From: a virus
DNA: 54,294 bases
Direction: 5' to 3' (one strand)
IMG/VR virus record: IMGVR_UViG_3300020438_000053
Location: 1-54,294 of that record
Positions 4,974 through 37,521 of this stretch are shown in pieces (the first letter of the stretch is position 1; each line of letters begins with the position of its first letter). The position numbers were made by a program, and so were the translations under genes. A model generated the notes under the pieces. It made no database searches. It had not been told where the DNA came from and worked only from the letters and a program-made list of their open reading frames with translations.

Positions 4974-6335
4974 GTGTCCCTAGACCTTAGAATACGACCT
5001 CTCGGTCGTCCGAAAATAACTAAGGACAATGCCCTTGGGTTACAGCGCCTAAGTCGACGGTATGTGGTCGAAGGCCCTAAAGTAACTAAAACCGGAATAA
5101 ACGGGACTCTTGATGGAACCGCGTTGTTTTTGGAGGTAGGTAAACCCGACGAGGAATTTACTGACCATTACTTAATCAACCAACAGATAGAGCCCGGTAA
5201 GACCGTGGACAAAGCCTACTTAACTCGGCAATACGCTCAGTTAAGAAATACGTGGCATTCTGAGCAATCGAGCCAAACTGCGTTTTTAAAAACTCTGTAC
5301 CGAAAATATACAGTGCTCCGCAAAAAAGACGACGTGTTAGGGTATGACGAAACTGCGTGGGGGATGCACCCAGTTAACTCCCTAGGAGGGTCCGACTCAC
5401 ACGATCCTTGGGACTTCCTTCCGCAAATAATAAAAAACACAAGCCCTACGACTTCGTATACCGTTGAGGACATCGTAAAAGCGGCGGAAGCATACCCAAA
5501 GCAATTCGAAGTTGACGATAACGTAATTCAACAATTTGGCGCAGACCTAGTAAACTACATACCTCTTCAAAATTTAGAGTGGATGCCCGCCAATGTTTCA
5601 ATAGACACGTCTAACCCCGGGGTCGACCTATGGGCGGTGTCGTGGAAACTCCCAAGTACCCCGAGCTGGTCTTTCGCTACGGGAAAGGGAGGGTCGTTTA
5701 AACTACCTCAGTTTGTTGATTTTGATGAATCCGGTTTTCACGTGCGAGGGTCTGCGGGGGCAGGAACTTCTTCAAAAAGCGCTTACAACTTTACGTTCTT
5801 TTACACAGGTGCCAACCCTCCCGCTATATTTACCCAAGCAGCGGGGGGAGGGCAGGGGACACCTACCGTCAGTATGGATTTTTACTTTCAAGGAGTAGAC
5901 GGCAGGGTTCAAACATTTAAGAGCACCTTTCCAAATTCCATTTTTAGCTACGGAGTGAATATGAGTGCGTATCTAAAATTCGAATCAAACACCCCAAACC
6001 CAGACGCTGGGATTGGAGTGATGGAAAAAGTCGCGATAGCGAAAAAATCGGGAGCTGCCGGCGAGCTTGTGTTTGGCTGGGACGCCGTAAACCCTTCTCC
6101 TGAGTACGTAAAGGCTAACGGCTATATCATTCCGTTAGCGGACTTTGACAAAATGCCTCACTTTCAAGGGCGTCCAATAGTCAAAGCCGGTGGTAATATA
6201 ACATGGTCTTCAGGTTACAACACCTCTGGCGGTTCCGCTGGGGTAATCCCCACTCGGATCGTGGGCTCTCAAATTAAAGCGGTGCATTCACACAAGGGCA
6301 AACGTATCTGGGTTATTCAACTGACCTTTTTATAA
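4974..6335 (+). CDS. Structural protein of unknown function, 453 aa
   Basis: Starts with GTG one base after the previous stop. The N-terminal 150 residues are charged with helices (KAYLTRQYAQLRNTWHSEQS); from about residue 200 onward it is beta- and Gly-rich (SWSFATGKGGSFKLPQFVDF, GGSAGVIPTRIV) with few charges, as in tail proteins. No catalytic motif is visible. It lies between a connector candidate and other tail genes, and its stop overlaps the next ATG (TAATGG), so translation is coupled. Probably a tail component. Confidence 0.6.
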   Translation: MSLDLRIRPLGRPKITKDNALGLQRLSRRYVVEGPKVTKTGINGTLDGTALFLEVGKPDEEFTDHYLINQQIEPGKTVDKAYLTRQYAQLRNTWHSEQSSQTAFLKTLYRKYTVLRKKDDVLGYDETAWGMHPVNSLGGSDSHDPWDFLPQIIKNTSPTTSYTVEDIVKAAEAYPKQFEVDDNVIQQFGADLVNYIPLQNLEWMPANVSIDTSNPGVDLWAVSWKLPSTPSWSFATGKGGSFKLPQFVDFDESGFHVRGSAGAGTSSKSAYNFTFFYTGANPPAIFTQAAGGGQGTPTVSMDFYFQGVDGRVQTFKSTFPNSIFSYGVNMSAYLKFESNTPNPDAGIGVMEKVAIAKKSGAAGELVFGWDAVNPSPEYVKANGYIIPLADFDKMPHFQGRPIVKAGGNITWSSGYNTSGGSAGVIPTRIVGSQIKAVHSHKGKRIWVIQLTFL

Positions 6336-24308: not shown

Positions 24309-24314
24309 TGTTTT

Positions 24315-24343
24315 GTTATACTAAAAGATGAGACGTGTGTCAA
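24315..24343 (-). promoter_or_regulatory. Strong sigma70-type promoter of the replication operon, leaderless
   Basis: On the minus strand TTGACA (24343-24338), a 17-bp spacer and TATAAC (24320-24315) match the bacterial consensus almost perfectly. Only AAAACA separates the -10 from ATG 24308, so transcription should begin at or within a base of the start codon. No ribosome-binding site can be present. Confidence 0.8.
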
Positions 24344-24375
24344 TGCGATACTTTGAGGTACGAAGGTGCGATTTT

Positions 24376-24672
24376 TTAACGTTTTTACGTTTCGGTGTGC
24401 GTTATTTAACGTAAAAACGTAATTCGTAAACCGTTGGAGGTGTTGCTACTTACGTACCTCTTTACATTTTTAACGTTTTTTTTATAAAAAGTATAGTAAC
24501 TGGGTATATAGCAACGGCAACGGTAACCCTGCAGCGTTTATGTAGTAATTTAACGTTCTAGGGAGGGTTTGGTACGTAAAAACGTAAAAACGTAAAATAC
24601 GCGCCTAACTCTAAGTGTATTAAAGCCTTACGACTTTACGTTTTAGGTTTTGTATCGTTATTAAACGTTAAC
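24376..24672. promoter_or_regulatory. Cluster of ACGT-rich palindromic sites, operator candidates
   Basis: The 470-bp gap between the RHH and HNH genes has no convincing gene. It holds repeated ACGT/AACGT motifs: TTAACGTTTTTACGTTT (24376-24392), TTAACGTAAAAACGTAA (24406-24422), TTAACGTTTTT (24470-24480), TAACGTT (near 24551), ACGTAAAAACGTAAAAACGT (24574-24593), TTTACGTTTTAGG (24635-24647) and TAAACGTTAA (near 24662). The common pattern is AACGT, five A/T, ACGT(T). They lie upstream of the RHH gene and are best read as its binding sites, though the tract is also AT-rich enough for a replication role. Confidence 0.6.
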
Positions 24673-24778
24673 TGGCTTTCTAAAATAGTAACCCAATCTA
24701 TTTCAGGCTTCTTTGACCACACCACAATTCGAAGACCCATCTCAGCAGACACCAAGATATGTACGTGGCCCCCCGGTA

Positions 24779-25048
24779 TCATTTCTTTTTACTGCGCCTT
24801 TTGGGCGAAGCGCTTTTGCGTTTGCGCGCGAATGATCTGTTTTTGGCCTTAGACACTACCCGAAGATTCTTTTTACGGTTGTCGGCAGTGTTTCGGTTTT
24901 TATGGTCTACGTCTTTACCGTCGCCTTTTCTCGCCTTACCTGCCTTAACCATCTTAGCCCTTGCGCTATTGCGCTGAGCCCTCCTCTTTTTTTGCTTAGG
25001 CCTCTTGTGGTATAAGTACTCTTTCTTGTAGTTTCTAGCTTTAGCCAT
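24779..25048 (-). CDS. Small HNH endonuclease
   Basis: An 89-aa, extremely basic protein. GDGKDVDHKNRNTADNRKKN carries the D48-H49 pair and N61 of the HNH motif, followed by LRVVSKAKNRSF (N70). The N-terminus MAKARNYKKEYLYHKRPKQK is typical of tiny phage HNH proteins found near terminase or replication genes. It probably nicks or cleaves DNA. It is isolated between two repeat-rich control regions, so it may act at an origin or simply be a free-standing mobile gene. Confidence 0.75.
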   Translation of the reverse strand: MAKARNYKKEYLYHKRPKQKKRRAQRNSARAKMVKAGKARKGDGKDVDHKNRNTADNRKKNLRVVSKAKNRSFARKRKSASPKRRSKKK

Positions 25049-25093
25049 GGTCTTAGGGTACCCACGGGGGGTTTCCGTTGCAATCCGTTGTGG

Positions 25094-25173
25094 ATCGGCT
25101 AGGTACTATCATGCCTGCAGAGGTGCTAAAAAGTGCTTGGTGCTTTTAAAATCCCACACATTTCCTTATTTCA
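25094..25173 (+). repeat. Composite intergenic element, copy A
   Basis: It contains ATCGGCTAGGTACTATCATG (25094-25113) followed by CCT, then GTGCTTGGTGCTT (about 25133-25145), then CATTTCCTTATTTCA (25159-25173). Related blocks occur at 37938-38034 and 38582-38646, and the first block also at 39132-39155. Non-coding here. It lies just before the iteron array and may be part of an origin or a promoter-like signal. Confidence 0.6.
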
Positions 25174-25326
25174 ATAATTGAAATTAGTCATGGTTTATTT
25201 AAAATTTTTAAAAAATTTTATAAAACCGTGTGGGAACATTTGGTGCTTAATGCTTGGTGCTTAGTGCTTAGTGCTTAGTGCTTAGTGCTTGGTGCTTGGT
25301 GCTTGGTGCTTGGTGCCTGGTGCTTA
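25174..25326. other. Origin-like region: AT-rich tract plus twelve heptamer iterons
   Basis: An AT-rich tract (about 25174-25228, including a long run of A and T only) is followed by twelve tandem copies of the heptamer GTGCTTA/GTGCTTG at 25243-25326, with one or two mismatches. The leftward replication operon and the rightward accessory module diverge around this point. Iterons next to an AT-rich unwinding tract are the classic plan of a replication origin. This has not been tested, and the array could instead bind a regulator. Confidence 0.5.
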
Positions 25327-25350
25327 GTGCGAACCGAACTAATCTCTTCA

Positions 25351-25657
25351 CGAACGTAGCAATACGTTCACACTGCAATACAAAACACAAAACAAGAAAC
25401 CGAACGTAGCAACACGTTCACACTGCAACCAAAACACAAAACAACGAACCGAACGTCGCAACACGTTCACACTGCAACTAAACACTGCAAAAAACCAAAA
25501 ACGGAAAGGAGATGCTATGGACCCATAGCTAAACTTGCCCATATCCAGACGTCGAAAGATGTCTGCACTGCAACCCAACCAACCATGAACTACGGACCTG
25601 AGTAAGTCCTAACAACTGCTCATTCTTCACGAACGTCGCAACACGTTCCTACTGCAA
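25351..25657. repeat. Array of GAACGT...ACGTTC hairpins followed by ACTGCAA
   Basis: Four units (25351-25379, 25401-25428, 25450-25477, 25630-25657) have GAACGT and ACGTTC arms around a short loop, then CACTGCAA or TACTGCAA. A fifth hairpin (AGACGTC-GAAA-GATGTCT, 25547-25564) is also followed by GCACTGCAA, and GCTATG-GACC-CATAGC (25514-25529) lies just before it. Loop bases vary while arms are kept, as expected for RNA or protein-binding structures. No gene is seen in 25049-25754 apart from these elements. Confidence 0.7.
25596..25622 (+). repeat. GAGYA-TGCTC stem-loop element, copy 1
   Basis: ACCTGAGTAAGTCCTAACAA followed by CTGCTCA. GAGTA pairs with TGCTC through one G-U pair. First of five copies sharing ACCTGAGYA, GT, TAA and ACTGCTCA; here it lies before the first gene of the accessory module. 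Confidence 0.7.
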
Positions 25658-25754
25658 TCTAAACAAAAATACATACCGGTACTAAGCGTGTTAACAGCAA
25701 ATACTTACAAACCTAACATACGTAAATACGCACGCTGAAAAGCCACTATCACTA

Positions 25755-26004: not shown

Positions 26005-26283
26005 ATGAAACCACACATCATAGATCCCTTCGGAAAACCAGATCACCTCATTCAACTTCTCAAAGAAGAAGGTGAAGTAACCAACCTAAGCGTCGACCAA
26101 GCCGGCTTCGACACTCTGCTCGAAAGACTACTCGCCATCGGAATAGACGGCGAACTCGCTAACAACAACGAATTCATCATGCACGTCTGCGAAAGTTTCG
26201 AAGCAGGAGGCGTACTATGCTCTCGCAACACCGACGACAAAACCATCGTCGCAATCTCAAAACCAGAGGCAACCTCTTTATGA
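26005..26283 (+). CDS. Hypothetical 92-aa protein
   Basis: Helical in appearance (DHLIQLLKEEGEVTNLSVDQ, then FDTLLERLLAIGI). It overlaps the next ATG by ATGA. No family is recognised. It lies between a small beta-rich protein and the DGQHR-domain protein, all transcribed rightward. Confidence 0.55.
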   Translation: MKPHIIDPFGKPDHLIQLLKEEGEVTNLSVDQAGFDTLLERLLAIGIDGELANNNEFIMHVCESFEAGGVLCSRNTDDKTIVAISKPEATSL

Positions 26284-27107
26284 TCATGCAAAATAAAACA
26301 ACCGGAACATCACTAGAAACCATAACACCAGCTATAGCTACTCAGTACTTGAAGCTAAACAGGCACAATAGAAAGTTGTCCAACAGAACAGCAGAACGGC
26401 TTGAACAAGCCATGAAAGATCTCAACTGGAAAACCAACGGTGAGACTATAAAGTTCGGAACCGGACTTGAAGGTAAAGAAATACTACTGGACGGACAACA
26501 CAGATTAACAGCCTGCGTTACCGCAAATGTTCCATTCTCAACGTACGTCATCCGAGGGCTCGACCCCGATGTCTTCGACACTATAGACAGCGGTAAGAAA
26601 CGCAATCTAGCAGATGTCTATTCCACCATGGGATGCAAAAGCACCACCATGCTAGCCTGTTCTATTGTTCTCGTCGACAGATATACTATCGGCAAATTAG
26701 CTCATCACAACAGTTCAGACTACCCAAACGAAGTAGCTCAAACACTCATCGATCTTTACCCCGAAATCATAACAAGTGTAAACCTAATAGAACGACTCAA
26801 GAAAACGCTCCCGCTAGCCCCAGGAGCCGTTGCTGCCGCTCACTACATCTTTGCACAAATAGACGTAGAAGAAGCAGACGCCTTCGCAGTCAAACTATCT
26901 AAAGGTATCGGACTCACAGAACACTGCCCGATACGGCACTTCCGCGAACAAATGATCAAAGACAGAGCTCGCAAAAATCCTTGGACACGGTTCGAACTGC
27001 TCGGAACTATCATCAAAGTATGGAACCACGTACGCTTTGCACGGTCAATGACCAGATCAGCCACGCGATGGACGCCAGATACGGCACCACAACCTGTCGC
27101 CAAATAA
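26280..27107 (+). CDS. ParB/DGQHR-domain protein
   Basis: A 275-aa protein starting at ATG 26280, which overlaps the previous stop. It follows the phage ParB-like (DGQHR) pattern: ITPAIATQYLKLNRHNRKLS, then a helix (RTAERLEQAMKDLNWKTNGE), ILLDGQHRLTACV, and VIRGLDPDVFDTIDSGKKRN. ParB-fold domains of this type bind nucleotides or DNA; in phages their role is largely unknown (some are nucleases or regulators). The C-terminal half is helical. Near an origin-like region, a DNA-binding or partition-related job is conceivable. Confidence 0.72.
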   Translation: MIMQNKTTGTSLETITPAIATQYLKLNRHNRKLSNRTAERLEQAMKDLNWKTNGETIKFGTGLEGKEILLDGQHRLTACVTANVPFSTYVIRGLDPDVFDTIDSGKKRNLADVYSTMGCKSTTMLACSIVLVDRYTIGKLAHHNSSDYPNEVAQTLIDLYPEIITSVNLIERLKKTLPLAPGAVAAAHYIFAQIDVEEADAFAVKLSKGIGLTEHCPIRHFREQMIKDRARKNPWTRFELLGTIIKVWNHVRFARSMTRSATRWTPDTAPQPVAK

Positions 27108-27345: not shown

Positions 27346-27355
27346 CAACTGCTCA
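27329..27355 (+). repeat. GAGYA-TGCTC stem-loop element, copy 3
   Basis: ACCTGAGTAAGTCTTAACAA then CTGCTCA. Same as copy 1 except one base. It overlaps the stop codon of the 64-aa gene, so the element is partly translated here but not at other sites. Confidence 0.75.
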
Positions 27356-27362
27356 ATCTTTC

Positions 27363-27468
27363 TACTCGTTCGCTAGTGACACATGTGGGCGCGATTGAAC
27401 CACGGCGAGACAGAGCAACGCTAGGATTAGCTACCCTAAACTTACACTCCCTAGACTTCGAACGAGTA
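27363..27468 (+). ncRNA. Structured RNA candidate upstream of the DUF2828 gene
   Basis: The 168-bp gap before the DUF2828 gene contains a perfect 10-bp terminal stem: TACTCGTTCG (27363-27372) pairs with CGAACGAGTA (27459-27468). Inside are CTAGG (27421-27425) with CCTAG (27450-27454), and the palindrome CACATGTG (27380-27387). The roughly 106-nt fold is a closed, stem-ended RNA, as Ro60-binding Y RNAs are, and the next gene encodes a Ro60-like protein. It does not fold as a canonical tRNA. The ncRNA call is inference; a cis-acting leader is an alternative. Confidence 0.45.
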
Positions 27469-27498
27469 CGATTTATTCACCTAATCCCTTTATAACAA

Positions 27499-27509
27499 TC
27501 CACACACCA
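27499..27509 (+). promoter_or_regulatory. CCACACACCA leader before the DUF2828 start
   Basis: TCCACACACCA lies 4 nt before ATG 27514 in place of a Shine-Dalgarno. One base differs from the consensus ACCACACACCA found before other genes in this module. Confidence 0.6.
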
Positions 27510-27513
27510 TACT

Positions 27514-29040
27514 ATGAGTAATCTATTACAAAACGTAGAGAGAGCTACGAACTCAACTCTCACAGAAAACGGTGCCTTGACGCACAAAAGCACACTCAAT
27601 GAGTGCTTAAACTTATTCTCCCGCGCAGGCGGGTTACGCAACAACCCAGTAGAAGCCTTAAACCTCTTCAAGAATGCATACGCAGAAGACCCAATCGCTG
27701 CAGTCATAACCCTATTCTACATTCGTGACATCCGAGGCGGGATGGGCGAACGACTCATATTCCGAGTATGTATGGACTGGTTGCTCGACAGGCAACCAAG
27801 CATGTACCGCAACATCGTCAATTGCACTCCTGAATTCGGGCGGTGGGACGACGTAGTGCGTCACTATCACGTCAACAAGGAACTAATTAAGAACCAGATC
27901 CGAGAAGACGTCGACAACACGGACGCACTACTCCCTTGCTCACTGCTCGCCAAGTGGATGCCCAGCATCTCAGCTAGCAACGATGCTCAGAAGCTTCTCG
28001 CCAAAGAAATCGCTTCCGACATGGGAATGACCCAAAGGTTATACCGAAAGCTGCTCGCCAAACTACGAAGTCACATCGACATCGTCGAAAGGCACATGTG
28101 CTCTAAGAACTGGTATGACATCGACTTCAGCAAGGTACCAAGCCAAGCCATGCTGAAACTCAAATCAGCCTTCTGGAAGAACCAACCAGAACGTTTCAAA
28201 GCCTACATAAACTCCGTCGAGAAGGGCGAAGAGAAGATCAATGCGGGCACTATCACCCCCGACCAGCTGGTCAAAGCCTACAACAGGGAACCGCACAATC
28301 ACATATACGGAGATCCCATCGTACTCGATCCAGTAATCGAAGAGCAATGGAAAGCCCTACCAACATGGGGCGAACCACAAGACATGCTCGTCGTAGCTGA
28401 TGTAAGCGGAAGCATGTACTGGTCAGAAACTCGACCTATCGACATCGCTATCTCACTCGCTCTGTACGCTAGCGAACGTAATGCCAACCCCCTCTGGCAG
28501 AACACGTTCATGACGTTCGACTCGAAGCCACAGCTGATGAAGGTGAATCCTCACAACACTCTACTAGAGAAAGTGCAAGAGCTCCAGAATGCCCCATGGG
28601 GCGGTAAAACTAACCTCCAAAGAGCCATCGATCTAATCATCGACAGCTGTGAGGTTGAGGCAGATCTACCCGATTCGCTGGTAATCATCAGCGACATGGA
28701 GTTCGACTACGCTACGGCTGGAACCACGAACTTCGACGCTTTCAAACAAAAAGCCGAAGCAAAAGGATTCAAGCTTCCTAACATAGTCTTCTGGAACGTA
28801 GACTCTAGGAATCGCCAATCGCCCGTCACCTTCGACGAGCGAGGCGTAGCCCTCGTGTCAGGTCGCTCACCATCGATTCTGCAAATGGCATTCGACGGCA
28901 ACTTCGATCCGATGTCCTTCTACCAAGAAGCGGTACTCAACAACCGCAGGTACAAAGATGTCAAACGCGGAGCACAGTTCGGTAACTCCTGCTGGGCAGA
29001 CACGCCCGTAGCAGACCAAGCTCAAGTCGATGATGCTTGA
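27514..29040 (+). CDS. DUF2828 protein: Ro60/TROVE-like helical domain plus vWA domain
   Basis: A 508-aa protein with the DUF2828 pattern: residues 20-130 include LFYIRDIRGGMGERLIFRV and CTPEFGRWDDVVRHY, the helical repeat region comparable to TROVE/Ro60 domains. From residue 288 a von Willebrand A domain has an intact metal-binding MIDAS: D296-V-S298-G-S300, T366 (GGKTNLQ) and D394 (ISDMEFD). Ro60 proteins hold misfolded RNAs and Y RNAs in a ring of helical repeats closed by the vWA domain. A similar RNA-holding or RNA-quality role is inferred here. It is the largest gene of this sub-operon and overlaps the next small membrane protein. Confidence 0.8.
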   Translation: MSNLLQNVERATNSTLTENGALTHKSTLNECLNLFSRAGGLRNNPVEALNLFKNAYAEDPIAAVITLFYIRDIRGGMGERLIFRVCMDWLLDRQPSMYRNIVNCTPEFGRWDDVVRHYHVNKELIKNQIREDVDNTDALLPCSLLAKWMPSISASNDAQKLLAKEIASDMGMTQRLYRKLLAKLRSHIDIVERHMCSKNWYDIDFSKVPSQAMLKLKSAFWKNQPERFKAYINSVEKGEEKINAGTITPDQLVKAYNREPHNHIYGDPIVLDPVIEEQWKALPTWGEPQDMLVVADVSGSMYWSETRPIDIAISLALYASERNANPLWQNTFMTFDSKPQLMKVNPHNTLLEKVQELQNAPWGGKTNLQRAIDLIIDSCEVEADLPDSLVIISDMEFDYATAGTTNFDAFKQKAEAKGFKLPNIVFWNVDSRNRQSPVTFDERGVALVSGRSPSILQMAFDGNFDPMSFYQEAVLNNRRYKDVKRGAQFGNSCWADTPVADQAQVDDA

Positions 29041-29122
29041 TCTAATAATCCTCGGAGCAGTGATGATGCTGACTCCGATCTCCTTCGTAATGATCATGGA
29101 CTACTTGACCATGCGAAGATAA
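29033..29122 (+). CDS. Tiny membrane protein, 29 aa
   Basis: ATG 29033 overlaps the end of the DUF2828 gene by 8 bp. The product MLDLIILGAVMMLTPISFVM continues with IMDYLTMRR: one hydrophobic helix and a basic end. A similar 30-residue membrane peptide is encoded at 29592. Such micro-proteins are common but poorly annotated in phages. Translation is likely by coupling; function is unknown. Confidence 0.45.
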   Translation: MLDLIILGAVMMLTPISFVMIMDYLTMRR

Positions 29123-29165: not shown

Positions 29166-29223
29166 AGCCTGTTCTAGTGAATCACATGTCTACCAACGAC
29201 ATGCACTGGAGCAGGCTTTTTTT
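29166..29223 (+). terminator. Strong intrinsic terminator after the DUF2828 operon
   Basis: AGCCTGTTCTAGTG pairs with CACTGGAGCAGGCT (two G-U pairs) and an inner stem CATGTC/GACATG extends the fold; seven T residues follow at 29217-29223. This is the clearest intrinsic terminator in the accessory module and would end the DUF2828 transcript. Confidence 0.85.
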
Positions 29224-29591: not shown

Positions 29592-29684
29592 ATGAACGAA
29601 CACACAGCCGACTGGGGCTTCATCCTTCTAGTAATCCTAGGCGTAATGATCCTAAGCTACTGCCTAACTGAAGTTCACCTATAA
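29592..29684 (+). CDS. Tiny membrane protein, 30 aa
   Basis: ATG 29592 is 2 bp after the previous stop. The product (MNEHTADWGFILLVILGVMI followed by LSYCLTEVHL) is a single membrane helix. Its stop TAA forms the start of the next ACCACACACCA leader. Comparable in size to the 29-aa protein at 29033. Function unknown. Confidence 0.45.
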   Translation: MNEHTADWGFILLVILGVMILSYCLTEVHL

Positions 29685-29694
29685 CCACACACCA
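29684..29694 (+). promoter_or_regulatory. ACCACACACCA leader
   Basis: Exact motif, 2 nt before ATG 29697, overlapping the preceding stop codon by one base. Confidence 0.65.
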
Positions 29695-32655: not shown

Positions 32656-33253
32656 AGAAGTAAATCGTTACATCCAAGATTGGGAACGGATTCGTCCTAA
32701 AACCAATCAAGAAACCATCAATCGATGGCGATTCGCCTACTGCACCATCCACACACCGTGGGAACGCAGTTGCGATCAATACGATCAAGTAAAAGGTATA
32801 TACGGCAAAGCCAACCTAAACAGCCTCGAACGATTACTATCACGCTCAACAGGCGGAATGTGGTCGATCAAAGCTAACGGGATGTACCACTTCCAACTCG
32901 AATGGGCAACGAACAAACAATTGTTCAAACCTACCAACGATTGGCAGACTTGGCGTAACAAACTAGTCGAGACACTACCCGGCATCGGGCAAGCCAAAGT
33001 TAGTTTCGCCATCGAAATGATTCATCCGACGGAAGCTCAATGCATATGTCTCGATCGACACATGCTCAAAGCCTTCGGCTGGACACAACTAGACAGCCAA
33101 CCAGAACTAGATCAATATATGATCTATGAAGACTACTGGTTAAAGCTATCCGCTGAACGGGGCGTCCCGCCTGTAATCAGCAGAAATATATTCTGGGACA
33201 GAATACAAAAACAAAACAGCTCACTCTACTGGGCTAACTCGATAATAGACTAA
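32465..33253 (+). CDS. Second HhH-GPD glycosylase-like protein
   Basis: Residues 163-200 show a helix-hairpin-helix (LVETLPGIGQAKVSFAIEMI) followed by CICLDRHMLKAFG with the catalytic Asp (D197) and a nearby Lys (K178). The folded part starts near residue 56. The first 55 residues overlap the GP88 gene and look like out-of-frame noise, but no other ATG, GTG or TTG is available, so an ATA start near 32612, or the long overlap, must be used. Sequence differs from the glycosylase at 29697, so this is not a recent duplicate. Confidence 0.68.
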   Translation: MTTASHTHPDPRSDNSSTDANPQDQTPLKLLSNSKQTSAGQVTRKIPREAQKKITTFFSQLKTREVNRYIQDWERIRPKTNQETINRWRFAYCTIHTPWERSCDQYDQVKGIYGKANLNSLERLLSRSTGGMWSIKANGMYHFQLEWATNKQLFKPTNDWQTWRNKLVETLPGIGQAKVSFAIEMIHPTEAQCICLDRHMLKAFGWTQLDSQPELDQYMIYEDYWLKLSAERGVPPVISRNIFWDRIQKQNSSLYWANSIID

Positions 33254-34212
33254 TGCACAAAACAATAAACCACACACCACAACAACCTCCGTATTCTATT
33301 ACGGATAATTCAATAACCATCCTCTGGAACGGTGAATCACACACCGTGTCCAGTTCCGCACCTAACTATAAGGATCTCAAAGACTGCATCATCAACGGTG
33401 CATGGGATGTCATAGACGAAGCACTGACCCCATCGAAATCATTCGAAAAGATCAGTGACGGTCAGATCACTATAGAAAATAACGCCGTCCACTATCAAGG
33501 CAAACCCATCCACAACGCAGCTACCCAAAAGCTCATGGATCTACTAGCACAAGGCTTATCAGATCCAAAACCTTGGATGAAATTCATCGAGAAACTCATG
33601 GCTAATCCCAGCTACAACAGCAGGGAACAAGGCTACAAGTTCCTCGAACACCGCAACATGCCCATCACAGCGGACGGCAACGTAATCGGATACAAAGGAG
33701 TCAACAGCGAATACAAAGACATCTACTCAGGTAAATTCGACAACTCAGTCGGACAACGCTTATCAATGAATAGATCCGGCGTTGACGACAATGTAGATCA
33801 CGGATGCTCAGCCGGCTTTCACATCGGAAGCCACGAGTACGCCGACTCTTGGGGATCCAACGGCAAACTCATGGTCGTTGAATTCTCACCCGAAGACATC
33901 GTCTCAGTACCAACCTGTTCAAGCTACGCCAAATTACGAGTATGCAAATACGAAGTAATCGGCGAATGCCACAACAGAGAGAAGCTGAACGACGGTCTCT
34001 ACGGACACGAAGGCGACATCAGATACGAAGACATATTCAAGTATCTCGAGAAACGCTGGAACAAAGGCAAATCCCCACGCTTCCGCAAGCTAAGCAAGAA
34101 GTTCCCAGGCATCAGCATAGAGGAACTCAACTCAGCTACCGAAGGCTACGGAGCTCTCACCACACTTGAGTGGGACGACTCCAAGAACGATTACCTAGTA
34201 ACTTTGCATTAG
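33253..34212 (+). CDS. rIIB-like protein
   Basis: A 319-aa protein with features of the T4 rIIB family: FLEHRNMPITADGNVIGYKG, KDIYSGKFDNSVGQRLSMNR, HGCSAGFHIGSHEYADSWG and AKLRVCKYEVIGECH. rIIB and rIIA together affect phage exclusion and lysis timing in T4; their biochemical role is still debated. The rIIA-like gene lies 1.06 kb downstream, with an HNH endonuclease gene and a small gene between them. The C-terminus is helical and basic. Confidence 0.78.
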   Translation: MHKTINHTPQQPPYSITDNSITILWNGESHTVSSSAPNYKDLKDCIINGAWDVIDEALTPSKSFEKISDGQITIENNAVHYQGKPIHNAATQKLMDLLAQGLSDPKPWMKFIEKLMANPSYNSREQGYKFLEHRNMPITADGNVIGYKGVNSEYKDIYSGKFDNSVGQRLSMNRSGVDDNVDHGCSAGFHIGSHEYADSWGSNGKLMVVEFSPEDIVSVPTCSSYAKLRVCKYEVIGECHNREKLNDGLYGHEGDIRYEDIFKYLEKRWNKGKSPRFRKLSKKFPGISIEELNSATEGYGALTTLEWDDSKNDYLVTLH

Positions 34213-35044: not shown

Positions 35045-35275
35045 ATGAAAATAGAATGCACAGACGGATTCACGTTCAGCATGGTCACAGGCTCAGGCAC
35101 ATATGCCATGCCAGGATGCGCTGAACTCGGATATCCATCAGAACCAGACGAACTATTGGAACCTCATCGAGAACAACTCAATGAAGATCCAACGGAATGC
35201 GTCTATCCATACACACCACTAACCGTAGTAGCACAACTACTCAAAAAGCATAACCACACACCAGATAACCAATGA
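35045..35275 (+). CDS. Hypothetical 76-aa protein
   Basis: Polar and acidic (ECTDGFTFSMVTGSGTYAMP, then GYPSEPDELLEPHREQLNED). The end overlaps the rIIA start as ATGA. No family is recognised. Leader: two ACCACACACCA copies and ACTATCATG context. Confidence 0.55.
   Translation: MKIECTDGFTFSMVTGSGTYAMPGCAELGYPSEPDELLEPHREQLNEDPTECVYPYTPLTVVAQLLKKHNHTPDNQ
35253..35263 (+). promoter_or_regulatory. ACCACACACCA leader before rIIA
   Basis: Exact motif 8 nt before ATG 35272, inside the last codons of the previous gene, so the motif can be encoded without loss of the upstream frame. Confidence 0.55.
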
Positions 35276-37521
35276 AACTAGCAACAAGTAACGCAACGCC
35301 GGCAGTGCATAATCTGTCATCACCATCTCACTTCTCGATCAAGAAGGAGAACATGTCACACATCATAGGAATACTCCGATCCAAGATCTATTCCAACAAA
35401 TGGCTGGCTGTCCTCAGAGAATACCTAACCAACGCAGTTGACGCACACGTCGAAGCAGGCCTACTAGCCTATCAAGTAGAACTAACGCTCCCGACACTAT
35501 CATCGCCTACGTTAATCATCCGTGACTTCGGTAAAGGATTAAGCGAAGAAGATGTCCGAGAGATGTACATCATGTACGGCTCATCAACCAAGCGACAATC
35601 CAATGACTACACTGGATGCTTGGGCATCGGATGCAAAGCCGCGTTCGCCTACACTGATACGTTCACCGTAACGTCATATCAGAATGGCAATCGCAGTACC
35701 TACAATGCAGTCATCACCGACGGCGGTGAAGGTAGCATCTACTGCATCGATTCATCCGACACCAATGACATGGACGGAATAGAAATCAAAGTACCAGTAC
35801 GAACGGAAGACATCGAGAACTTCAAAAGGGAAGCATTCGGAATCCTTCCATACTTCGACACGCCACCACGTCTTATCAACGAAGACATGGAGTATCCAAC
35901 GCTGGATATCATTGATGCCGGAACAAACTGGAGATTGAAAAAAGATACCAGCGGAAGCCACGGTTATCATCGTAACCACGGCAAAGCTACCGCCGTCATG
36001 GGTAACATCCCATACAAACTAGAAGTAGATAAGATGGGTAACACTGAACATTCCGACATAATCGAATGCAGTAACATCATCATCAACTTCCCCTTGGGTA
36101 GCTTGGACATCGCTGCCAACCGTGAATCGTTGGAGTACACACCACGTACAATCAGCAACATCAACATCGAAGCAGAGCGAGTAATCAAAGACTTAGCTAC
36201 CAAGCTACAAGTCAAGATATCAAACTGCAAAAACCTATGGGATGCATCACTCAAAGCTCATGAAGTAACCAAGAACTTACCGTATGGAATAGCCAACAAA
36301 GTATTCGATGCCATGCGATTCAATAACGAACGCCTGAAAAGAAAGTTCCGCTTTCCTTGTAGCGTCACAAGACATTACAGGAAGCACAGGTACAGAGCCA
36401 ACGACTACGCCAATGCGAAAGAAGACACTAGTCTCATAGGCGTCGATGAACACAGCACCGTATGCATATACGACGTCCGCGAACTATCATCGGTTCAAGC
36501 GACGATGCGGGTAAGAACACTGCAAGCCAACAGTAACTGGGACAAAGAGAAAGTATTCTATGCAATAGCATACGACTCCAAAGCTAAGTTACCCAAAGGC
36601 ACACGCATACTTACCACCGACGTGTTACCTGCAAAGTTCCTAAAGAAACTACCAAAGCCTGCGGTAAACGCTGACGGACAATCATTACCATGGGAGTCCG
36701 ATGCTCACTTACTCAAAGACAACTACATCAACCTGAATGAGGTAGAAACGTACAAGCCTGCACGTAAGAAAAAGAATGACGATGGATCTACGACACCCGT
36801 CAAGATCGATACATGCTTCTTAAAGCCAAATCATCTCGCATCAGGTAGAATCGTCCAATCGGAATACCTAGCACCATGCAATGGCATGCACATCTACATA
36901 CCGTTGGATCGCTACTCGTGGCACGACAAGAAGTACAGCTTAGAGCATGATGACTTCAAACTCATACGAACAGCACTACAAATGATGCATCGCTTGGAAG
37001 GACTACCCAAACCAACCATCCACGGAGTAAAGAAACACTTCTTAGATAAGTTAGACGACACATGGGTAGAGTTAGACGACTGGTACAACAAGCTGTACAA
37101 GAAAATAAAGAACACGCATCGCAAAAAGATCGCGCTCGCTGCAAATGAAGTATTAGGACACGGCACCCCATACACATACTCAGAACATAAAATATTCGAG
37201 AAACTACCAAAGAGTTTACGATTCCCCGAATGGGAAACATTCAAACTCATAAGGGAACAGCACGAATACAACCCGGGCAACGTCAACTATGTTACAGTAC
37301 GCGACACGTCCGACATAGATACAGACGACGAAGTCAGTCACCTTCTTCATCATGTATGGAGAATGTTTAACCCTGACTTCCAATCACCAAACACAATACA
37401 TGAAGCCTACGAAACATTCCTCAAAGCACATCCAATGATGAGGTATTTCAACACAAACTGGCAACGCAACGACAAGGAGGAAGTAAACGATGTCAAAGAA
37501 TATCTTACACGAGGAGCCTAA
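35272..37521 (+). CDS. rIIA-like protein with GHKL ATPase domain
   Basis: A 749-aa protein whose N-terminal 200 residues show the GHKL fold: N-box LREYLTNAVDAH (E50, N54, D57), G1 DFGKG (85-89) and G2 GCLGIGCKAAF (115-125). The family, including T4 rIIA, uses ATP binding in membrane-associated functions. The remaining 550 residues are charged and helical without recognised domains. In T4 rIIA precedes rIIB; here the order is rIIB, HNH, small gene, rIIA. It overlaps the next gene by 32 bp. Confidence 0.8.
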   Translation: MKLATSNATPAVHNLSSPSHFSIKKENMSHIIGILRSKIYSNKWLAVLREYLTNAVDAHVEAGLLAYQVELTLPTLSSPTLIIRDFGKGLSEEDVREMYIMYGSSTKRQSNDYTGCLGIGCKAAFAYTDTFTVTSYQNGNRSTYNAVITDGGEGSIYCIDSSDTNDMDGIEIKVPVRTEDIENFKREAFGILPYFDTPPRLINEDMEYPTLDIIDAGTNWRLKKDTSGSHGYHRNHGKATAVMGNIPYKLEVDKMGNTEHSDIIECSNIIINFPLGSLDIAANRESLEYTPRTISNINIEAERVIKDLATKLQVKISNCKNLWDASLKAHEVTKNLPYGIANKVFDAMRFNNERLKRKFRFPCSVTRHYRKHRYRANDYANAKEDTSLIGVDEHSTVCIYDVRELSSVQATMRVRTLQANSNWDKEKVFYAIAYDSKAKLPKGTRILTTDVLPAKFLKKLPKPAVNADGQSLPWESDAHLLKDNYINLNEVETYKPARKKKNDDGSTTPVKIDTCFLKPNHLASGRIVQSEYLAPCNGMHIYIPLDRYSWHDKKYSLEHDDFKLIRTALQMMHRLEGLPKPTIHGVKKHFLDKLDDTWVELDDWYNKLYKKIKNTHRKKIALAANEVLGHGTPYTYSEHKIFEKLPKSLRFPEWETFKLIREQHEYNPGNVNYVTVRDTSDIDTDDEVSHLLHHVWRMFNPDFQSPNTIHEAYETFLKAHPMMRYFNTNWQRNDKEEVNDVKEYLTRGA

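What the first reader, a model, noticed from the sequence alone, without database searches (positions are those of the whole stretch)
27514..29040. Phage-encoded Ro60/TROVE-like DUF2828 protein with complete vWA MIDAS
The protein has the helical-repeat plus vWA plan of Ro60, the protein that holds non-coding Y RNAs and misfolded RNAs. The MIDAS is intact (D296, S298, S300, T366, D394). The gene lies among structured-RNA candidates. A phage RNA chaperone or an RNA-decoy system would be new; DUF2828 proteins have no established function in phages.
Basis: partly seen in the sequence, partly recalled or inferred. Interest (0 to 1): 0.8.

Follow-up and report, generated by a model that had tools for sequence, protein, structure and literature searches.

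The report
Phage Ro60-like protein with Y-RNA-like array
This phage gene encodes a Ro60-like RNA-binding protein of a kind already known from hundreds of phages, and about 1.8 kb upstream the same phage carries a row of small RNA hairpins that look like the RNA partners ('Y RNAs') such proteins hold, which makes the phage Ro/Y-RNA complex testable.

Summary
ORF 27514-29040(+) encodes a 508-aa protein that matches DUF2828 plus DUF7788 (the vWA part), and its MIDAS residues D296, S298, S300, T366 and D394 are invariant in 78 of 78 homologues. The AlphaFold model (pLDDT 90) matches only Ro60/TROVE structures among its 13 best PDB hits, including a Ro60 from a Thermus phage. The claim of novelty does not hold: 677 of 50,697 phage records carry a homologue, many already annotated 'Ro-like RNA binding protein', and several papers discuss phage Ro60. 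By sequence it is not TROVE (PF05731), so I file it as DUF2828 with the Ro fold.

Loci of this family, in phages and in bacteria, carry strand-specific Y-RNA-like elements: stem, 2 nt, ACAGCAA, complementary stem. A strict version gives 175 (+) against 1 (-) in 80 bacterial loci and 113 against 4 in 82 viral loci. Some enclose tRNA-like cores. The window has no YrlA RNA and no tRNA, but its 25352-25736(+) stretch holds five hairpin-plus-ACTGCAA copies and one canonical ACAGCAA element. A model trained without the window ranks these six first in the whole 54 kb. Best reading: a phage Ro/Y-type RNP. RNA binding and function are inferred.

The parts
27514..29040 (+). DUF2828/DUF7788 Ro60-like protein, 508 aa: N-terminal helical repeats (about 1-285) and C-terminal vWA domain with complete MIDAS (D296-x-S298-x-S300, T366, D394)
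   Evidence: families; MIDAS 78/78; model; 13 best PDB matches all Ro60/TROVE
25335..25750 (+). Non-coding array of Y-RNA-like elements in the leader of the rightward gene block that holds the Ro-like gene
   Evidence: RNA fold z -3.7; 7 descriptor hits on + and 0 on - in block 24309-25754, against shuffle mean 0.036 and maximum 2 in 2000
25352..25378 (+). Y-type element 1: hairpin GAACGTAGCAATACGTTC + ACA + CTGCAA
   Evidence: 17.7 bits, best match of the window
25402..25428 (+). Y-type element 2: hairpin + ACA + CTGCAA
   Evidence: 14.0 bits
25451..25477 (+). Y-type element 3: hairpin + ACA + CTGCAA
   Evidence: 12.8 bits
25546..25573 (+). Y-type element 4: different stem CAGACGTC-GAAA-GATGTCTG (compensatory changes) + CA + CTGCAA
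   Evidence: (13.0 bits)
25631..25657 (+). Y-type element 5: hairpin + CTA + CTGCAA
   Evidence: 14.9 bits
25685..25736 (+). Canonical open Y element: AGCGTGT-TA-ACAGCAA ... GCACGCT
   Evidence: strict descriptor; one of only two hits in the window, the other also in the array; one search matches 25671-25702 at 13.2 bits
25363..25408 (+). Alternative open pairing between repeats 1 and 2 (TACGTTC-AC-ACTGCAA ... GAACGTA), exclusive with hairpins 1 and 2
29166..29217 (+). Long hairpin followed by a T run, terminator-like, 3' of the gene

Best explanation
The gene encodes a phage Ro60-like RNP protein: an array of HEAT-like helices closed by a vWA domain, of the DUF2828 family. Its RNA partners are Y-RNA-like elements encoded on the same strand: five tandem hairpins followed by ACTGCAA, plus one canonical stem-NN-ACAGCAA-stem element at 25352-25736. 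In analogy to Ro60/Rsr, the protein would bind the element on its helical ring, and the Y RNA would control access to the ring or tether a partner. The RNP would then hold or deliver structured, damaged or misfolded RNA (tRNA fragments, decay intermediates) during infection. Shown here: protein family, fold, intact MIDAS, the strand-specific association of the element with the family in phages and bacteria, and its presence in the window. Inferred: that the protein binds the element, that the array is transcribed, and what the RNP does.
For: Family and fold. MIDAS invariance. Y-side in relatives: full-length sub-threshold YrlA matches beside phage homologues; tRNA-like permuted cores with covariation 0.60 against 0.20 shuffled; strict open element 113(+)/4(-) in viral and 175(+)/1(-) in bacterial loci, shuffles 0-5; ACAGCAA is the most strand-biased heptamer of all in bacterial flanks, 225/28, and 159/19 in held-out viral flanks. 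Window: exactly five closed elements, all in 25352-25657 on +; the six best matches of a model trained only on relatives are all in 25352-25702. tRNA genes lie close to the gene in 14 of 15 sampled records. A Listeria homologue was detected in purified virions with 20 peptides (PMC12282133).
Against: No biochemistry for this protein or this array. The window's elements score low one by one (17.7-12.8 bits, E 0.3-2.4), five of the six carry ACTGCAA rather than ACAGCAA, and four of the six are near-copies, so they are not independent. The element was found by looking at relatives, then tested; only part of the viral set was held out. Not every locus shows it (22 of 82 viral loci lack it). PF05731 TROVE does not match by sequence. 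The array lies 1.8 kb from the gene, not next to it as in most relatives.
Confidence: 0.62

Rival explanations
1. The array is a cis-acting leader: the Ro-like protein (or another factor) binds the hairpins in the 5' leader of its own operon and tunes expression, and no separate Y RNA exists.
For: The array precedes the rightward gene block on the same strand, with the Ro-like gene about 1.8 kb downstream; in bacteria the elements crowd the 500 nt directly upstream of the gene.
Against: In phages the elements also lie downstream of the gene (MiniLon, Staphylococcus BE02) or enclose tRNA-like cores, which fits trans-acting RNAs better.
Confidence: 0.2
2. The array is a DNA or regulatory repeat (origin iterons, operator sites or unrelated RNA hairpins) whose likeness to Y elements is chance; the Ro-like protein works with host RNA or an RNA not in the window.
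For: The block also holds heptamer TTGGTGC repeats and an AT-rich palindrome between divergent gene blocks, as an origin or switch region might; individual scores are low.
Against: Hits on one strand only; 7 hits against shuffle mean 0.036; a compensatory stem in copy 4 with the CTGCAA kept; a canonical ACAGCAA element next to it.
Confidence: 0.15
3. The protein is a takeover factor that acts on host RNA decay or host RNPs early in infection, possibly carried in the virion, with the phage RNAs as minor cargo.
For: CKA15_055, a Listeria DUF2828 homologue, was found in purified virions with 20 peptides and 57% coverage (PMC12282133); LeBron gp53, a Ro-like protein, inhibits growth when overproduced (PMC13148394).
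Against: Virion presence can be carry-over; overproduction toxicity is unspecific; it does not explain the conserved adjacent RNA elements.
Confidence: 0.15
4. It belongs to tRNA and RNA repair: the RNP presents nicked phage or host tRNAs to ligases during attack by anticodon nucleases.
For: Neighbouring tRNA arrays, RtcB-like and RNA ligases near some homologues, and the proposal for ROT/TROVE proteins of jumbo phages in PMC7824862.
Against: The window has no tRNA gene, and no RNA ligase was found among the window proteins scanned (not every ORF was scanned); it may be a fragment.
Confidence: 0.25

Closest known systems
phrog_850 'RNA-binding protein' / DUF2828 'Ro-like RNA binding protein' of mycobacteriophages, Listeria, Felix O1-like and KVP40-like phages
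   Same: Same family over the full length (34-42% identity), same MIDAS, same strand-specific Y-like elements nearby in many
   Different: Window copy lacks tRNA neighbours and a tRNA-like Y RNA; its elements are a closed tandem array with ACTGCAA, 1.8 kb upstream
Thermus phage phiLo Ro60 (PDB 9l5y), TROVE domain structure 9kop
   Same: Best structural matches over nearly the whole length (TM 0.50-0.56)
   Different: 18-19% identity; the A3 profile does not find them by sequence
Ro60 (human, Xenopus) and Rsr of Deinococcus radiodurans (2nvo)
   Same: Helical repeats plus vWA fold; Y-RNA-like partners encoded nearby (for the family)
   Different: 12-14% identity; PF05731 does not match; the DUF2828 element is ACAGCAA-based rather than the published Y motif (the latter from memory)
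YrlA bacterial Y RNA (RF02553)
   Same: Circularly permuted tRNA-like core found beside several phage homologues
   Different: Not found in the window

Membership tests
DUF2828 / phrog_850 | Profile match over the protein | tested here: met
   PF11443 4e-40, PF25043 1.6e-38; phrog_850 5e-131 over residues 1-480
Ro60 fold (helical ring + vWA) | Overall fold | tested here: met
   Model pTM 0.90; 13 best PDB matches all Ro60/TROVE, E 2e-9 to 2e-5, TM 0.37-0.59
Ro60 fold (helical ring + vWA) | Complete MIDAS in the vWA domain | tested here: met
   D296, S298, S300, T366, D394, all 78/78
Ro60 fold (helical ring + vWA) | Closed ring with positively charged cavity | tested here: inconclusive
   Only net charge was computed: helical part +2 here, family mean +7.9; no surface calculation
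TROVE (PF05731) | Sequence profile match | tested here: not met
   No PF05731 match at E 0.1 for the protein or at E 10 in the genome; the profile search of the PDB finds no Ro60
Ro60/Y RNA system | Y RNA encoded near the gene: YrlA type | tested here: not met
   No RF02553 match at E<=1 in the window; tRNA-like core model best 11 bits
Ro60/Y RNA system | Y RNA encoded near the gene: simple Y element of the DUF2828 type | tested here: inconclusive
   Six elements at 25352-25736, top-ranked and one-stranded, but mostly the ACTGCAA variant and low single scores
Ro60/Y RNA system | Protein binds Y RNA and misfolded RNA | not testable with these tools
   Needs binding assay or CLIP

The most novel reading that the evidence does not exclude
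DUF2828, a family without assigned function in Pfam, is a second, sequence-distinct Ro60 lineage that works throughout bacteria and phages with its own Y RNAs, defined by one element (stem-NN-ACAGCAA ... stem'). That element comes in three layouts: simple, around a circularly permuted tRNA core, and set into the anticodon arm of an unpermuted tRNA. The window's phage has turned it into a tandem multivalent hairpin array without any tRNA part.
Probability: 0.4. Interest if true: 0.68.

Novelty: new member of a known kind. Interest (0 to 1): 0.45.

Why it matters
Why so many phages carry a Ro60-like protein is an open question. Here the protein comes with a definable RNA element that can be mutated, so the partner can be tested directly. 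The same element marks 69 of 80 bacterial DUF2828 loci, which gives a large unassigned family a likely role and a simple handle. The gene itself is ordinary for a tailed phage.

Tried and rejected
Sequence-only comparison with the PDB, single and profile: no Ro60 found; the relation shows only by fold. Rfam at gathering and at E<=5: three sub-threshold matches (mir-499, a plastid 3'UTR family, CRISPR-DR28), taken as chance. A search with the Y-RNA motif remembered from the literature (CGAAG ... TTGAC) gave many scattered pairs on both strands, none convincing. YrlA and permuted-tRNA-core models: nothing in the window. Many lower-scoring core-model hits in relatives are pairs of neighbouring tRNAs, not Y RNAs, so only hits of about 50 bits or more (those the model was built from, selected by the descriptor) were taken as modules. 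The upstream gap 27346-27513 folds no better than shuffles (z -0.16). The downstream z of -5.9 is mostly terminator and was not used as evidence. The closed-element counts are void (a name clash in my script); one search repeats them. I considered equating the highly transcribed region of Listeria phage CKA15 (26,236-26,727, PMC12282133) with its Y elements; the elements lie at 25,289-25,553 instead, so that link is not claimed. I could not read Chen et al. 2014, which by my memory of its abstract reports likely Y RNAs near Ro60 in over 250 bacterial and phage species.

Full report
Observation. The ORF at 27514-29040(+) is real, 508 aa. It matches Pfam DUF2828 (4.3e-40) and DUF7788 (1.6e-38), with weak vWA matches below cut-off, and PHROG phrog_850 'RNA-binding protein' at 5e-131 from residue 1 to 480. 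The surrounding record is a tailed phage: major head protein, DNA polymerase, helicase, terminase large subunit and RIIA/RIIB-like genes downstream.

Fold. An AlphaFold2 model from 78 sequences has mean pLDDT 89.9 and pTM 0.90: helices through about residue 281, then the alternating strand/helix vWA part. Foldseek against the PDB gives 13 best matches that are all Ro60/TROVE (9kop TROVE; 9l5y Ro60 of Thermus phage phiLo; Xenopus, human and Deinococcus Ro), with alignments over nearly the whole length and TM 0.37-0.59. By sequence the link is invisible: PF05731 does not match and a profile of the family finds no Ro60 in the PDB. So 'Ro60 fold' is met and 'TROVE family by sequence' is not. A positively charged cavity was not tested beyond net charge.

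How known it is. 677 of 50,697 phage records encode a homologue, 675 of them over at least 80% of the protein. Many are annotated 'Ro-like RNA binding protein' or 'RNA-binding protein'. Published: structural likeness of cluster C/AF mycobacteriophage proteins to RO60 (PMC12363180); an Rsr-like protein with supposed Y RNAs in Listeria phage CKA15, found in purified virions with 20 peptides (PMC12282133); ROT/TROVE proteins in jumbo phages with an RNA-repair proposal (PMC7824862); a Ro60-related ORF in a Vibrio jumbo phage (PMC7765460); toxicity of LeBron gp53 on overproduction (PMC13148394).

The RNA side in relatives. In 14 of 15 sampled records the gene lies nearer to a tRNA than 83-98% of the genome does (Fisher p 9e-6). 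Rfam's YrlA model gives matches below its cut-off but with E 5e-10 to 7e-7 beside four of these genes (EFDG1, KP2025, MiniLon, phiN3). They contain a circularly permuted tRNA core: T arm, acceptor stem closed by a loop, D arm. Fifteen such cores covary (score 0.60 against 0.20 in shuffles). In B23, LAh_9, L019, L023, L024 and L034 the same flanking motif sits in the anticodon arm of an unpermuted tRNA-like RNA.

The common element. All these share a stem followed by 2-4 nt and C[AT]GCAA, with the partner stem either before it (closed hairpin) or after it (open). In flanks of 95 loci the closed form occurs 44 times on the gene strand and 7 on the other, shuffles 2-14; in 73 loci not used to define it, 31 against 6, shuffle mean 4.9. 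Twenty-seven copies covary (0.59 against 0.25). A strict open form (at least 7 bp, exactly 2 nt, AC[AT]GCAA) occurs 113(+)/4(-) in viral and 175(+)/1(-) in bacterial loci, shuffles 0-5, and in 69 of 80 bacterial loci; distant stretches of the same phages give 5/1 in 300 kb. Without any descriptor, ACAGCAA is the most strand-biased heptamer in the bacterial flanks, 225 against 28, mostly within 1 kb upstream of the gene.

The window. It has no tRNA, no YrlA and no permuted core. Yet the closed descriptor finds exactly five hits in 54 kb and both strands, all at 25352-25657(+). Four share the stem GAACGT/ACGTTC; one has a compensated different stem with the CTGCAA unchanged. The strict open descriptor finds two hits, both in the same block, one of them canonical (AGCGTGT-TA-ACAGCAA ... 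GCACGCT, 25685-25736). In the non-coding block 24309-25754 there are 7 hits on + and 0 on -, shuffle mean 0.036, maximum 2 of 2000. A covariance model built only from relatives ranks the six elements first in the window with filters off (17.7-12.8 bits, next 10.4), although no single E-value is significant. Region z -3.7. Because four elements are near-copies, I count about three independent agreements.

Mechanism. Most likely the protein and the array form a Ro/Y-type RNP that holds or hands over structured RNA during infection. Shown: family, fold, MIDAS, association of element and family, presence in the window. Inferred: binding, transcription, function. Rivals are autoregulation in the operon leader, a chance or DNA-level repeat, a takeover factor carried in virions, and tRNA repair; each has a test above.

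Verdict. Observation confirmed; interpretation partly supported; the protein is a new member of a known kind. The interest lies in the element, which makes the role of phage Ro proteins testable, and whose description in earlier work I could not check.

Noticed in passing
window 27500, 29247, 29685, 34269, 35007, 35021, 35254 (+); 22891, 15694 (-): The motif (A)CCACACACC(A) stands 10-40 nt before the start codon of many genes in this phage, seemingly in place of a Shine-Dalgarno sequence.
   Followed up: partly
window 25595, 27116, 27328, 34233 (+): Four copies of GACCTGAG(Y)A(W)GTC..TAACAACTGCTCA, each able to form a TGAG-NN/NN-CTCA hairpin, near gene ends; unexplained.
   Followed up: no
window 25240-25335 (+): About a dozen head-to-tail copies of TTGGTGC/TTAGTGC directly before the hairpin array, next to an AT-rich palindrome at 25189-25230, between divergent gene blocks; possible origin or switch region.
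   Followed up: no
L004:7851-7960, L018:4895-5015 and 5025-5137, L012:1367-1483: RNAs of 110-121 nt, three of them annotated as 'tRNA' (tRNA-Ser, undetermined) and one found only by the tRNA model, carry the hairpin-plus-C[AT]GCA Y motif in the anticodon arm: apparent unpermuted counterparts of YrlA.
   Followed up: partly
L194 (OR088597.1) record 25289-25553 (-): Three Y-like elements in the unannotated gap upstream of CKA15_055 of Listeria phage CKA15; the published highly transcribed region 26,236-26,727 does not contain them.
   Followed up: yes
window 29030-29122 and 29593-29685 (+): Two reading frames of about 30 aa that look like single membrane-spanning peptides (MMLDLIILGAVMML..., MNEHTADWGFILLVILGVM...), the first overlapping the end of the Ro-like gene (read from the sequence).
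   Followed up: no
window 33253-34212 and 35272-37521 (+): RIIB-like and RIIA-like proteins (phrog_609, phrog_612) in the same gene block.
   Followed up: no
L114-L193, bacterial genomes: DUF2828 genes with tandem ACAGCAA elements are common in gut Clostridia and Synergistaceae, with several elements upstream of one gene.
   Followed up: partly
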